In this document: positions 3,130 through 6,480 of the stretch, piece by piece | How positions within the stretch are numbered: position 1 is the first letter of the stretch | How the letters are laid out: every line of letters begins with the position of its first letter | Source of the DNA: an uncultured Eubacteriales bacterium | Lineage (GTDB): Bacteria > Bacillota_A > Clostridia > Peptostreptococcales > Anaerovoracaceae | DNA: 10,080 bases | Assembly (NCBI GenBank): GCA_902774195.1 | Contig: CACYHM010000019.1 | Location: forward strand, 1 to 10,080 | Direction of reading: 5' to 3' | Made by a program: the position numbers and the translations under genes | Notes under the pieces: generated by a model | Databases searched by the model: none | Told to the model about the DNA's origin: nothing | The model's input: the letters and a program-made list of their open reading frames with translations, nothing else

Positions 3130-6100
3130 TTAATGCTTGTGTATGAGTGATGCGAGCAGGTCGTACAGGCTCTCCGGTTCGACCGGCTTCGACAGATGGG
3201 CGTTCATGCCGGCTTCGAGAGAATTCTTGACATCCTCTTCGAAGGCGTTGGCCGTAAGCGCGATGATAGGTATCCGCCTTGCATCGGGCCTTTCCATGAC
3301 CCTGATCGCAGCTGCGGCTGTGAGTCCGTCCATCACAGGCATGCGTATGTCCATGAGGACAGCGTCATAGTAACCTACGTCGTTGTCTCCGAACATGTCG
3401 ACCGCGATCTGACCATTGCCGGCCCTCTCGTGCTCCATGCCCTCCATCTCGAGAATATCTCCGATGATCTCAGCGTTGATGTCCACGTCCTCGGCTATGA
3501 GCACGCGGATGCCCTCGAGCTTGTAGCCTTCACCGGCGGCATCTTCCGCTTCGTCCGCCTCGTTCGCGGATCCTTTGATCCTGCTCCTCATGACCATCTG
3601 TATCTCGCGCTGCAGCGTGTCGGCGAAGAGCGGCTTTGTGAGTATGCCATCCACGCCTTCCTTGTGGGCCCGCTCTGATTCCGCGTCGAAATCGTATCCG
3701 GTCATTATGATGATGGCTGTCTCACCCCCGTCGAAGCGTCTGATCTCTTCAGTCAGGGTTATACCGTCCATGACAGGCATGCGGTAGTCTGTGATGACGA
3801 TATCGTACGGATCGCCGTCTTCCCACCTGCGCTTGATGAGGCTGAACGCCTCGCTGCTGCGCTCGCAGATATCCGTATCGGCGCCGAGTTCTTCAAGCAC
3901 AAGCTTAACGTGCTCGTATGCGACAGGGTCGTCGTCGACTACCAGGACCTTTATCCTGCCGAGCAGCTCATCTAGTTTCTCCGTCTCGAGCGAACGCGAG
4001 GATTCTCCCAGGTCGACCGTAACGGTAAAGGTCGATCCGACACCCTTCTCACTGTCAACGTCGATGGTCCCTCCCATCATCCCGACAAGATTGCCGGTAA
4101 TGGCCATGCCGAGGCCGGAGCCTCCGTATTTGTTGGTCGTGGTCGCATCCTCCTGCGAGAACGCGTCGAACATCCTAGGGATGTATTCCCTGTCCATACC
4201 GATGCCTGTGTCGCGCATCGTGAACCTGAGCGTGCACCTGCCGCCTTCCCTTGCAGTCTGCTCTACGGTGAAGAACACCCGGCCCGGCGACGGCGTGAAC
4301 TTGACTGCATTGCCGAGTATGTTGATCAGCACCTGCTTGAGCTTCATATCGTCGCCCACGTAGTAGTCGTCGATATTGCCGACTATCTGGCACTCGTAGT
4401 CGAGGCCCTTGTCCTGGCACTGGCCGTTTATGATCACATTGATCTGATCGAGGAACTCTCTCATCGCAAAGTCCTCGTTCTTGAGCACCATGCGGCCCGA
4501 CTCGATACGGCTCATGTCGAGTATGTCGTTGATGAGCCCCAGAAGATGTCTGGCGCTGTGACCGATCTTCTCGAGCTGTTCGCGGGTGTGCGGCGGCACG
4601 TTCGGATCTTTCAGCGCGATGTTGTCGAGTCCGATGATGGCGTTCATCGGCGTTCTTATCTCATGGCTCATGTTCGAGAGGAAGCTCGTCTTGGCGCGGC
4701 TGACCTCTTCGGCCATTGCCTTTTCGACTTCGATCTGCTGCTCGCGCTGACGCATTATCCTGTAGATAGCGAATATGATGGCGAGCGCAATAACGATGAG
4801 AAGCGTCTGGATCATCATATTGGTCGTCATCGATTTTGTGACCTCTCCGAGTACGTCCTCGAGGTATTCGATCGAGTTCTTCGAGGCCGAGGTCGTTATA
4901 TCGACTCCGTTTTCCGTCAGGATCTGTTTATAGTTTTCGTGTATAGGCTCTATTGCCTGCTCAGCTGCAGTCGTTGTAGCCTGCCTCATCCACACCGTCG
5001 ATGTGAAGTATACGAGGGCGAGCAGCACGATCCAGACCACCATCGACTTGCCGAAGCGCCTGGTAGTGTCGTTCTTGAATACGACATAGAACGCGGCGAA
5101 GCCGAGTATGCTCCATGCCGCAAGTATGAAGTACGACTCCGTGCCGAGCGTAGTGACATCGAGCAGGTTAGGCACGAGGAAGTACAGCGCGAACAGGCAG
5201 GATGCTGCGATCCCGGCTCCTCCCGTTATCCTTATCTTTTTGTTGCCGCGCTCACCGGCGGCCTTGAATGCTGCAGCCGATGTATACGCGTATGCTATGG
5301 CCGCGCCGACCGTCGTGACGTCGACTACCCAGCTGGTCGCAGTGCGTCCGAAGAACGGGATTATCACGGATACGAGCATTATCGCGATGATAGCTCTGCG
5401 CGGGACGCTGCCCTTTTCTGTCTCTCCGAGCCTGCCCGGCACGATCCCTTCTTCGGCCATGGCGCAGAGCAGTCTGCTGGATGCTATGTAGTTGCCGATG
5501 AGACCCGTCACGATACCTCCGATGCACGTTATGGCCAGAAGGACTGCTCCTGCGTTTCCCATCGCCTGATGGGTAGCGTAGAAAGTAGGCACACCCTTGA
5601 GGCCGTCCAGGTCTCCGGCTTCTGCCAGGTATTCAGTCCAGCTTCCGTATTCCGGCGGCAGGATGGCGGCTGCATCAAGTGCCAGCAGAGCGTATGCCGC
5701 GATAGCTGCGACGACAGCTGCTGTCATTATCGCTCCGGACTTTTTCGGCGAAAAGCTGAATTCCTCCGACGAGTGGGAAATGGACTCGAAGCCCACAAAA
5801 GCCCACGGCGCGAGGAAGACTATGGTGAACACTCCCGAGACCGGGCTCTTTCCCGGCGCGAAAGCAGGCTTGAGTGTCGCAAATCCTCCCTGGTGCATGT
5901 TCCAGGTCCCGGCAAAGCAGAATAAAACGCCTCCAAGCAGTATTATCGCCATGGCTATCTGTATCCATCCGGCCAGACGGTTCCTGAAGCACACCAGCCC
6001 TGCGAGCATTATGGCCGCGACCGCAAGCATCACCTCTCCGAACCATATGTCGAAACCGGCGATCCTGTAGTGGAATCCGTACTGGAACATGCCTCCGAGC

Positions 6101-6480
6101 AGCTTCCTGAAAAGCAGCGGGAGCGCTGTCGCGTTGGCCCACATTATCGCCACGTATGTGAGGATCAGGAACCACGCGCAGAGGAAGCCGTGGTCATAAC
6201 CGAATTCCTTCTTGGTATATGCGAAAGCCCCTCCGGCATCCGGATAAATATTTATAAGATAGTGATAATTGAAACCTATTATGATCATGATGATGCCGCC
6301 GATCACGATACCTATGACCGTGCCGACAGGTCCAGCCGTAGGCAGGAAGGTGTTTCCCGGCATCATGAAAGCTCCCCAGCCGACCGCGCATCCGAAGGCA
6401 AGCGCCCACGCGGTCAGCGGAGTCACATATCTTTCGAACCTGCCGTTTGTTCTGTTTTCAATGCTGTCTGGCTCTTTCAT
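3130..6480 (-). CDS. APC-family permease fused to histidine kinase and two receiver domains
   Basis: This 1116-residue membrane protein joins a transporter to a hybrid kinase. Residues about 20-470 are an APC amino acid permease with roughly 12 hydrophobic helices: the first has the GxG-type unwound motif (GWGAFMMPG, 34-42), and the region after helix 6 reads GFES...EEFSFSPKKSG (230-249), typical of the family. A basic loop (467-479) leads to an extra helix (about 481-497), an outside segment of about 58 residues (498-555), a final helix (556-575) and a signalling helix (576-600). The kinase follows: HisKA with H606, ATPase N box at N724, DTGIG (757-761) and GGSGLGM (786-792). Receiver 1 has D849/D850, phosphoacceptor D898 and K949. 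Receiver 2 has E997/D998, D1044 and K1098. All catalytic residues are present, so kinase and both receivers should be active. It probably senses or transports an amino-acid-like ligand, by analogy with transporter-kinases such as CbrA, which has an unrelated transporter domain. Ligand and transport activity are unknown. The frame is continuous, with no sign of frameshift. Its ribosome site is only moderate (GGGGA, about seven to eight bases upstream). Confidence 0.92.
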   Translation of the reverse strand: MKEPDSIENRTNGRFERYVTPLTAWALAFGCAVGWGAFMMPGNTFLPTAGPVGTVIGIVIGGIIMIIIGFNYHYLINIYPDAGGAFAYTKKEFGYDHGFLCAWFLILTYVAIMWANATALPLLFRKLLGGMFQYGFHYRIAGFDIWFGEVMLAVAAIMLAGLVCFRNRLAGWIQIAMAIILLGGVLFCFAGTWNMHQGGFATLKPAFAPGKSPVSGVFTIVFLAPWAFVGFESISHSSEEFSFSPKKSGAIMTAAVVAAIAAYALLALDAAAILPPEYGSWTEYLAEAGDLDGLKGVPTFYATHQAMGNAGAVLLAITCIGGIVTGLIGNYIASSRLLCAMAEEGIVPGRLGETEKGSVPRRAIIAIMLVSVIIPFFGRTATSWVVDVTTVGAAIAYAYTSAAAFKAAGERGNKKIRITGGAGIAASCLFALYFLVPNLLDVTTLGTESYFILAAWSILGFAAFYVVFKNDTTRRFGKSMVVWIVLLALVYFTSTVWMRQATTTAAEQAIEPIHENYKQILTENGVDITTSASKNSIEYLEDVLGEVTKSMTTNMMIQTLLIVIALAIIFAIYRIMRQREQQIEVEKAMAEEVSRAKTSFLSNMSHEIRTPMNAIIGLDNIALKDPNVPPHTREQLEKIGHSARHLLGLINDILDMSRIESGRMVLKNEDFAMREFLDQINVIINGQCQDKGLDYECQIVGNIDDYYVGDDMKLKQVLINILGNAVKFTPSPGRVFFTVEQTAREGGRCTLRFTMRDTGIGMDREYIPRMFDAFSQEDATTTNKYGGSGLGMAITGNLVGMMGGTIDVDSEKGVGSTFTVTVDLGESSRSLETEKLDELLGRIKVLVVDDDPVAYEHVKLVLEELGADTDICERSSEAFSLIKRRWEDGDPYDIVITDYRMPVMDGITLTEEIRRFDGGETAIIIMTGYDFDAESERAHKEGVDGILTKPLFADTLQREIQMVMRSRIKGSANEADEAEDAAGEGYKLEGIRVLIAEDVDINAEIIGDILEMEGMEHERAGNGQIAVDMFGDNDVGYYDAVLMDIRMPVMDGLTAAAAIRVMERPDARRIPIIALTANAFEEDVKNSLEAGMNAHLSKPVEPESLYDLLASLIHKH

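What the first reader, a model, noticed from the sequence alone, without database searches (positions are those of the whole stretch)
3130..6480. Amino acid permease fused to a complete hybrid histidine kinase with two receivers
One uninterrupted frame joins an APC permease (12 helices with the GxG and GFE/EE motifs), an extra helix pair around a segment of about 58 extracellular residues, an intact HisKA/ATPase core (H606, N724) and two intact receivers (D898, D1044). Transporter-kinase fusions are known, for example CbrA with a sodium-solute-symporter-like domain, but an APC fold in this position is not one I know to have been experimentally described. It could work as a transceptor: a permease whose conformational cycle reports ligand supply to a phosphorelay. 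Similar fusions probably exist in other Lachnospiraceae, so novelty lies in function rather than in the single protein.
Basis: partly seen in the sequence, partly recalled or inferred. Interest (0 to 1): 0.82.

Follow-up and report, generated by a model that had tools for sequence, protein, structure and literature searches.

The report
Permease-shaped sensor driving c-di-GMP signalling
Gut and rumen bacteria appear to have turned an amino-acid-transporter fold into a sensor that plugs directly into signalling enzymes, a widespread arrangement for which I found no published study in the library I could search.

Summary
Confirmed and widened. The frame is real, on the minus strand (3130-6480, 1116 aa): APC permease, HisKA, HATPase, two receivers, key residues intact. 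Not an assembly join: 2408 relatives score E<=1e-3 and 119 of the 120 listed carry permease, HisKA, HATPase and receiver. It is the last gene of a conserved phosphorelay set, hybrid kinase > REC-GGDEF-EAL > Hpt > APC-kinase, in 21 of 23 two-receiver loci with at least 4.2 kb upstream. The regulator's GGDEF motif is degenerate and its EAL motifs intact in 33 of 33, so the predicted output is c-di-GMP hydrolysis. The same permease plus two helices is also fused to GGDEF (35 of 120 listed) and GGDEF-EAL proteins. Fused permeases form one clade apart from stand-alone relatives, marked by W114 and E232: 376 of 376 fused rows, 0 of 44 stand-alone rows; one later fused protein lacks W114. Best reading: a permease-derived receptor module for c-di-GMP control. 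Ligand and transport are untested; neighbours of stand-alone relatives hint at small sulfonates, phosphonates or omega-amino acids. New variant of known transporter-kinase fusions (CbrA, Amt5).

The parts
3130..6480 (-). APC permease - hybrid histidine kinase with two receivers, 1116 aa
5071..6426 (-). 12-helix APC permease core, residues 19-470; fold like AdiC
6139..6141 (-). codon of W114, fixed in the fused clade (Pro, Ala, Ser, Thr or Cys in stand-alone relatives)
   Evidence: 376 of 376 fused rows, 0 of 44 stand-alone rows (42 distinct genes); exception L143
5785..5787 (-). codon of E232, fixed in the fused clade (Asp in 41 of 44 stand-alone rows)
   Evidence: 376 of 376 fused rows, 0 of 44 stand-alone rows (42 distinct genes)
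4747..5040 (-). TM13, extracellular hairpin, TM14 (residues 481-578); present in kinase and GGDEF fusions, absent from the stand-alone permeases whose ends I read
   Evidence: models; sequences
4609..4890 (-). single continuous helix 531-624 joining TM14 to the HisKA domain
   Evidence: AlphaFold2 model
4495..4695 (-). HisKA, residues 596-662, H606
   Evidence: H in 68 of 68
4009..4356 (-). HATPase_c, residues 709-824, N724
   Evidence: N in 68 of 68
3601..3948 (-). first receiver, about residues 845-960, D898
   Evidence: D in 30 of 30 proteins that have it
3157..3504 (-). second receiver, residues 993-1108, D1044
   Evidence: D in 68 of 68
6521..6892 (-). Hpt phosphotransfer protein, 123 aa
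   Evidence: PF01627 29.7 bits, cut-off 24.6; His in 40 of 40 aligned Hpt proteins
6896..8599 (-). response regulator REC-GGDEF-EAL, degenerate GGDEF, intact EAL: predicted c-di-GMP phosphodiesterase
8596..10077 (-). partner hybrid kinase HisKA-HATPase-REC, 493 aa
   Evidence: H, N and D kept in 28 of 28

Best explanation
The protein is a membrane receptor whose sensory domain is an APC (AdiC/SLC7-like) permease core plus a coupling unit of two further helices (TM13, extracellular hairpin, TM14). Ligand binding or the conformational cycle of the permease moves TM13/TM14; because TM14 is modelled as one helix with the HisKA dimerisation helix, this changes autophosphorylation of H606. Phosphate passes through the receivers (D898, D1044) to the neighbouring Hpt protein and on to the receiver of the neighbouring REC-GGDEF-EAL protein, whose EAL domain hydrolyses c-di-GMP; the partner hybrid kinase feeds or drains the same Hpt. 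Shown: architecture, intact residues, gene order, one clade of fused permeases, use of the same module with GGDEF outputs. Inferred: signal direction, Hpt as hub, phosphodiesterase output. Guessed: ligand (a small organosulfonate, aminophosphonate or omega-amino acid). My lean, about 55 to 45, is that the permease acts mainly as a receptor with little or no net transport, as in Amt5, rather than as a transporter as well, as in CbrA.
For: Fusion held across the family. Gene order HK > REC-GGDEF-EAL > Hpt > APC-HK in 21 of 23 two-receiver loci with room; Hpt upstream in 30 of 30; an EAL regulator upstream also in Actinomycetota and Chloroflexota loci. GGDEF motif degenerate and every EAL motif checked intact in 33 of 33 regulators; receiver, Hpt and kinase residues intact. 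The same permease is joined to GGDEF in 35 of the 120 hits listed (motif GG[DE]EF intact in 37 of 38 proteins) and in all 120 listed, 113 of them with EAL. Both models have TM13 and one continuous helix into the output domain. Fused permeases are one clade: 85 of 117 rows, SH-aLRT 100; 66 of 100 rows, 99. G34, G36, N116, W226, G230, R336, R379 and D387 are kept in 372 to 376 of 376 fused rows; W226 and E232 align with AdiC W202 and E208 (hhalign probability 99.3).
Against: No ligand, phosphorylation, transport or c-di-GMP data exist here. Of 26 one-receiver loci with room, 21 have no Hpt upstream and only 3 have the full set, so the relay is not general to the family. The first tree needs only one change between kinase and GGDEF outputs, so repeated swapping is not shown; the second tree needs three, which rests partly on one long-branch row, L153. 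E232 is also the residue of the transporter AdiC, so it cannot be read as loss of transport. The most basal fused protein, L143, has E232 but P114 and S116. [quoted passage not shown] The 376 fused rows were found by similarity to this module and are related, a biased sample.
Confidence: 0.7

Rival explanations
1. True transceptor: the permease transports its substrate and the kinase reports flux or the transport cycle, as proposed for CbrA.
For: The APC fold and most pocket residues are conserved. The fused clade's sisters are stand-alone permeases. CbrA transports L-histidine (abstract of PMC7096432).
Against: W114 and E232 are fixed in 376 of 376 fused rows and found in 0 of 44 stand-alone rows, and the fused clade sits on a long branch (0.69 changes per site; 0.40 plus 0.41 around L143), which suggests a shift of function; the same module feeds GGDEF enzymes, where a sensory role suffices.
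Confidence: 0.3
2. Regulated transporter: the permease is an effector whose uptake is set by the phosphorelay or by c-di-GMP.
For: Nothing direct; KimA, with bound c-di-AMP, is among the fold matches, and regulation of APC-fold transporters through soluble domains is established knowledge.
Against: A 12-helix domain placed N-terminal of a continuous helix into HisKA or GGDEF has the layout of an input domain; more than one output type with the same module fits input better than effector.
Confidence: 0.08
3. Vestigial anchor: the permease only anchors or dimerises the kinase, and the extracellular hairpin (about residues 502-552) or the partner kinase does the sensing.
For: The hairpin is present in the kinase and GGDEF fusions compared. 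In CbrA, deletion of the SLC5 domain did not abolish signalling (passage of PMC7096432).
Against: Pocket residues are nearly invariant while the hairpin is among the less conserved parts and partly modelled with low confidence.
Confidence: 0.12
4. Assembly error or chance joining of two genes.
For: None; L066 shows a split frame, but with the parts in the same order.
Against: 2408 relatives; permease and HisKA in one frame in 75 of 80 fetched contigs, among them L050 (Butyrivibrio sp. WCD3002) and L077 (Lachnospiraceae NK4A144), whose titles bear no MAG mark.
Confidence: 0.005

Closest known systems
CbrA / CrbS / RpuS: SLC5-STAC histidine kinases
   Same: Transporter N-terminal to a sensor kinase in one chain; SLC5-STAC units are also joined to diguanylate cyclases (passage of PMC7096432). 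CrbS and RpuS seen in search listings only.
   Different: SLC5 (solute/sodium symporter) family, not APC; joined through a cytoplasmic STAC domain (and PAS in CbrA). Here a TM13-hairpin-TM14 unit runs straight into HisKA, and Pfam gives neither SLC5 nor PAS in the window protein.
Ks-Amt5, ammonium sensor kinase of Kuenenia
   Same: Transporter fold fused to a histidine kinase; binds ligand and signals (passages of PMC5764959).
   Different: Amt/Rh fold; reported to bind but not translocate ammonium; no receivers, Hpt or c-di-GMP regulator in the passages I saw.
5TMR / S-component-fold sensor kinases
   Same: Sensor kinases whose membrane part shares a transporter fold, with PAS, GGDEF, EAL or receiver partners (passages of PMC11109136).
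   Different: ECF S-component fold; the term 'APC' does not occur in that paper's main text.
AdiC, ApcT and LAT (SLC7) transporters
   Different: Transporters without TM13/TM14 coupling unit or signalling domains.
BarA, TorS and ArcB-type hybrid kinases
   Same: Kinase core and multi-step relay layout; the best NCBIfam hits are BarA (361 bits, cut-off 890) and TorS (340.3, cut-off 676.5).
   Different: Below cut-off for all; different input domain; Hpt here is a separate gene.

Membership tests
APC superfamily permease (AA_permease_2) | Profile match above the curated cut-off | tested here: met
   89.8 bits against 27
APC superfamily permease (AA_permease_2) | APC (LeuT-like) fold | tested here: met
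APC superfamily permease (AA_permease_2) | Transport of amino acids or related compounds | not testable with these tools
   needs uptake assays
Hybrid histidine kinase | HisKA with phospho-His, ATPase N box, receiver Asp | tested here: met
   H606, N724 and D1044 in 68 of 68, D898 in 30 of 30 that have the domain
SLC5-STAC histidine kinases (CbrA type) | SLC5/SSF transporter domain | tested here: not met
   the membrane part matches AA_permease_2 and AA_permease only
SLC5-STAC histidine kinases (CbrA type) | STAC domain | tested here: inconclusive
   no such Pfam match; I did not check whether Pfam holds a STAC model
c-di-GMP phosphodiesterase (EAL) response regulator, window 6896-8599 | intact EAL catalytic motifs | tested here: met
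   33 of 33 including the window
diguanylate cyclase, window 6896-8599 | GG[DE]EF motif | tested here: not met
   EGDRF in the window; 0 of 33 canonical
Transceptor in the strict sense (transports and signals) | transport activity plus signalling | not testable with these tools
   no assay possible

The most novel reading that the evidence does not exclude
A single event turned an organosulfonate, aminophosphonate or omega-amino-acid permease into a dedicated receptor (signature W114/E232, plus TM13/TM14), which lost net transport and spread as an interchangeable input module for histidine kinases, diguanylate cyclases and GGDEF-EAL enzymes in rumen and gut anaerobes, where it sets c-di-GMP from ligands such as taurine or 2-aminoethylphosphonate.
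Probability: 0.25. Interest if true: 0.88.

Novelty: new variant of a known kind. Interest (0 to 1): 0.72.

Why it matters
How a transporter becomes a receptor has few bacterial models. Here one clade, from a family of thousands of proteins, has stand-alone sister permeases, a basal intermediate (L143), two clade-specific substitutions and several kinds of output, so the step from transport to sensing can be tested by reciprocal mutation. It also proposes an input for c-di-GMP signalling in rumen and gut anaerobes: the word 'permease' does not occur in the main text of the review of c-di-GMP sensing that I searched (PMC8846402).

Tried and rejected
Whole genome of the window: not held. Assembly error: rejected. 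Repeated exchange between kinase and GGDEF outputs: I first read this off the tree, but the first tree needs one change only, and its GGDEF rows are already one side of a weak branch (support 61). In the second tree one clade of the 22 GGDEF rows is rejected (p-AU 2.2e-05), but with the kinase L153 added it is not (p-AU 0.54). L153 has a long branch and odd composition. At least one change is shown; a second rests on L153.

Apparent stand-alone hits: of 16 proteins whose ends I read, P0174, P0175, P0198, P0203 and P0213 among others run on past helix 12 and break off, so I did not count them as stand-alone. P0225, P0226, P0229, P0235, P0238 and P0239 end soon after helix 12 and were counted. 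admits only proteins of about 258-822 aa, so its share of GGDEF fusions is not a rate against kinases.

First alignment of TM3 to AdiC by eye put N116 on N101; hhalign puts A117 there and W114 on AdiC W98. There is a gap nearby, so about one residue of doubt remains.

Ligand: evidence stays thin. Of 17 nearer stand-alone loci (L121-L126, L140, L149-L152, L154, L156-L160), three carry a sulfonate or phosphonate gene above an equivalog cut-off: L122 Xsc, L154 HpfG and HpfH, L157 PhnW-AepZ. Four more carry a class III aminotransferase (subfamily models) or alanine dehydrogenase above cut-off: L124, L125, L126, L159. In L123 the aldehyde dehydrogenase scanned passed no cut-off among those shown, and the other nine were not scanned because I recognised nothing by eye; only genes I picked by eye were scanned. 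In L154 the alcohol and aldehyde dehydrogenases passed no cut-off and the exporter-like protein matched nothing at the threshold used. The L154 permease could be an exporter, since that pathway has a 3-hydroxypropanesulfonate exporter HpfE (passage of PMC11489063). GABA transaminase above cut-off lies beside three more distant permeases (L128, L130, L133). That 2-aminoethylphosphonate is common in rumen protozoa is recalled, from no call.

Literature: by their listings, searches showed no study of an APC/AA_permease-histidine kinase or -GGDEF fusion. Listings are capped (20 of 25, 20 of 180), and the library lacks most subscription papers. Searches looked for taurine and sulfonate links. All 10 searches are used.
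Full report
Observation. The frame at 3130-6480 is real and lies on the minus strand. It encodes 1116 residues: AA_permease_2 21-434, HisKA 596-662, HATPase_c 709-824 and two receivers. A search with the whole protein gave 2408 proteins with E<=1e-3 among the 7987 candidates scored; of the 120 listed, 119 carry permease, HisKA, HATPase and receiver, and one (P0052, 752 aa) stops early. 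The joining of permease and kinase is therefore not an assembly error.

Surroundings. On the same strand, upstream, lie Hpt (6521-6892), REC-GGDEF-EAL (6896-8599) and a hybrid kinase (8596-10077), with gaps of 40 and 3 bases and an overlap of 4. Downstream, 24 bases on, lie an AMP-binding ligase and an IF-2B family protein. Of the 30 two-receiver loci (window not counted) all have Hpt upstream; of the 23 with at least 4.2 kb of upstream sequence, 21 have hybrid kinase, REC-GGDEF-EAL, Hpt and APC-kinase in this order. The two misses are L003 (hybrid kinase downstream instead) and L044 (Hpt only). One-receiver loci differ: of 26 with room, 3 have the full set, 2 Hpt only, and 21 no Hpt; some of these have another hybrid kinase next door (L034, L047, L050, L077). 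In the listing the ligase and IF-2B genes are not a conserved part: the only other match is an AMP-ligase frame beside L046.

Taxa and habitat. By record titles the 80 loci are Bacillota (74), Actinomycetota (4), Chloroflexota (1) and Synergistota (1); 59 of 80 titles contain a ruminant, a forestomach or the tag RUG, which I take for rumen genomes from memory. Only the best 80 were kept and MAG sampling is uneven, so this is a lead, not a rate.

Output. In 33 complete regulators, the window's included (two cut-off pieces, L020 and L033, left out), the GGDEF motif is never canonical (EADRF 14, EGDRF 6, ten other forms 13), while AEAL[IV]RW, the N of [VI]NxSR, E[VIL]TES, DDFG[SA]GYS, the K and D of KxD, EGVE and the Q of QG are kept in all 33, as is the receiver Asp. 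By established knowledge of these enzymes this predicts a phosphodiesterase. The Hpt phospho-His is kept in 40 of 40.

A reusable module. The permease part alone (470 aa) finds 1019 proteins of about 258-822 aa; of the 120 listed, 35 are annotated permease-GGDEF (about 740 aa). A third search, with the permease part of L030:13350-17684, gave 782 proteins; of the 120 listed all carry GGDEF and 113 carry EAL. GG[DE]EF is intact in 37 of 38 permease-GGDEF proteins. One further form has PAS and GGDEF (L144, 1175 aa). The kinase and GGDEF forms that I compared share TM13, an extracellular hairpin and TM14 (ten proteins printed). In both models the last helix runs without a break into the output domain: 531-624 in the window protein, 524-584 in P0163 (mean pLDDT 84.7, pTM 0.72). 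These are monomer models; dimers were not predicted.

Origin. A tree of 117 permease domains puts all 85 fused rows in one clade (SH-aLRT 100, branch 0.69), with stand-alone permeases P0225 and kin as sister. A second set of 100 rows, with new fused and stand-alone rows added and others dropped to save time, again gives one fused clade of 66 (99). Both are quick trees without bootstrap. Two sites separate fused from stand-alone proteins: W114 and E232, each in 376 of 376 fused rows and 0 of 44 stand-alone rows, which are 42 distinct genes because two were fetched twice. Of eight further fused proteins (L141-L147, L153) seven agree; L143, the most basal, has E232 but P114 and S116. The 376 were collected by similarity and are not independent. 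W226 and E232 align with W202 and E208 of AdiC, and W35 with S26; that these AdiC residues line the substrate path is recalled.

Ligand. Genes beside some of the nearer stand-alone permeases include (2S)-3-sulfopropanediol dehydratase and its activase (L154), 2-aminoethylphosphonate aminotransferase (L157) and sulfoacetaldehyde acetyltransferase (L122), each above an equivalog cut-off; four other loci have class III aminotransferases or alanine dehydrogenase above cut-off. A Tpa-Ald pair opens taurine breakdown in Bilophila (passages of PMC6386719), but no gene here was identified as Tpa. Ten of the 17 nearer loci gave no such hint. I treat the ligand as a guess, about 0.3 for the sulfonate/phosphonate/omega-amino acid class.

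Comparison with print. CbrA joins an SLC5 transporter through STAC and PAS to a kinase and transports histidine (abstract and passages of PMC7096432; passages of the 2026 preprint PMC13022988). [quoted passage not shown] SLC5-STAC units also occur with diguanylate cyclases. So transporter-kinase and transporter-cyclase fusions are known; an APC permease in this place, the TM13/TM14 coupling unit, and the Hpt/EAL relay are what is different here. I saw no paper on it in the listings named under Tried and rejected.

Verdict. A real, widespread and, as far as my searches reach, unstudied family; a new variant of a known kind. The sensory role of the permease is supported by anatomy and evolution but untested; transport and ligand are open.

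Noticed in passing
window 8596-10077: The kinase core of the partner hybrid kinase is 64% identical to that of the APC-kinase; in 24 other loci compared it is 40-56%, except L002 (65%), which suggests duplication or gene conversion in this lineage (L015, L066 and L067 could not be compared).
   Followed up: partly
window 230-3105: An acyl-CoA ligase-like gene (below all NCBIfam cut-offs shown) and an IF-2B family gene (PRK05720 subfamily 344.5 bits, cut-off 271; mtnA equivalog not reached) follow the APC-kinase by 24 bases on the same strand.
   Followed up: partly
L141:1966-7308: A 1780-residue APC-kinase-receiver protein with about 800 further residues that match no Pfam family at E<=0.001.
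   Followed up: no
L144:2232-5759 and L145:2517-6107: Permease fusions of 1175 and 1196 residues; L144 has PAS and GGDEF, L145 was not scanned.
   Followed up: partly
L153:1089-5669: A one-receiver APC-kinase directly followed by REC-GGDEF-EAL with no Hpt between; in the second tree its permease lies among GGDEF-fused permeases.
   Followed up: partly
L143:2408-5782: The most basal fused protein, with P114 and S116 but E232, looks like an intermediate between stand-alone permease and receptor.
   Followed up: partly
L098:454-2886: A permease fusion of 810 residues with only a below-cut-off HATPase match and no HisKA; its output domain is unclear.
   Followed up: no
L051:9728-11866: A frame with permease and HisKA (712 aa) is followed by a separate kinase-receiver frame, perhaps a broken or divided kinase.
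   Followed up: no
L154:9092-17867: A stand-alone sister permease lies in a (2S)-3-sulfopropanediol dehydratase cluster with activase, iron alcohol dehydrogenase and a protein that looks like TauE/SafE by eye.
   Followed up: partly
L122, L123, L124: Stand-alone relatives occur in tandem arrays of two or three copies.
   Followed up: no
L030:9986-20085: Three consecutive permease fusions: the APC-kinase that ends the conserved gene set, then GGDEF-REC-GGDEF-EAL and GGDEF forms.
   Followed up: partly
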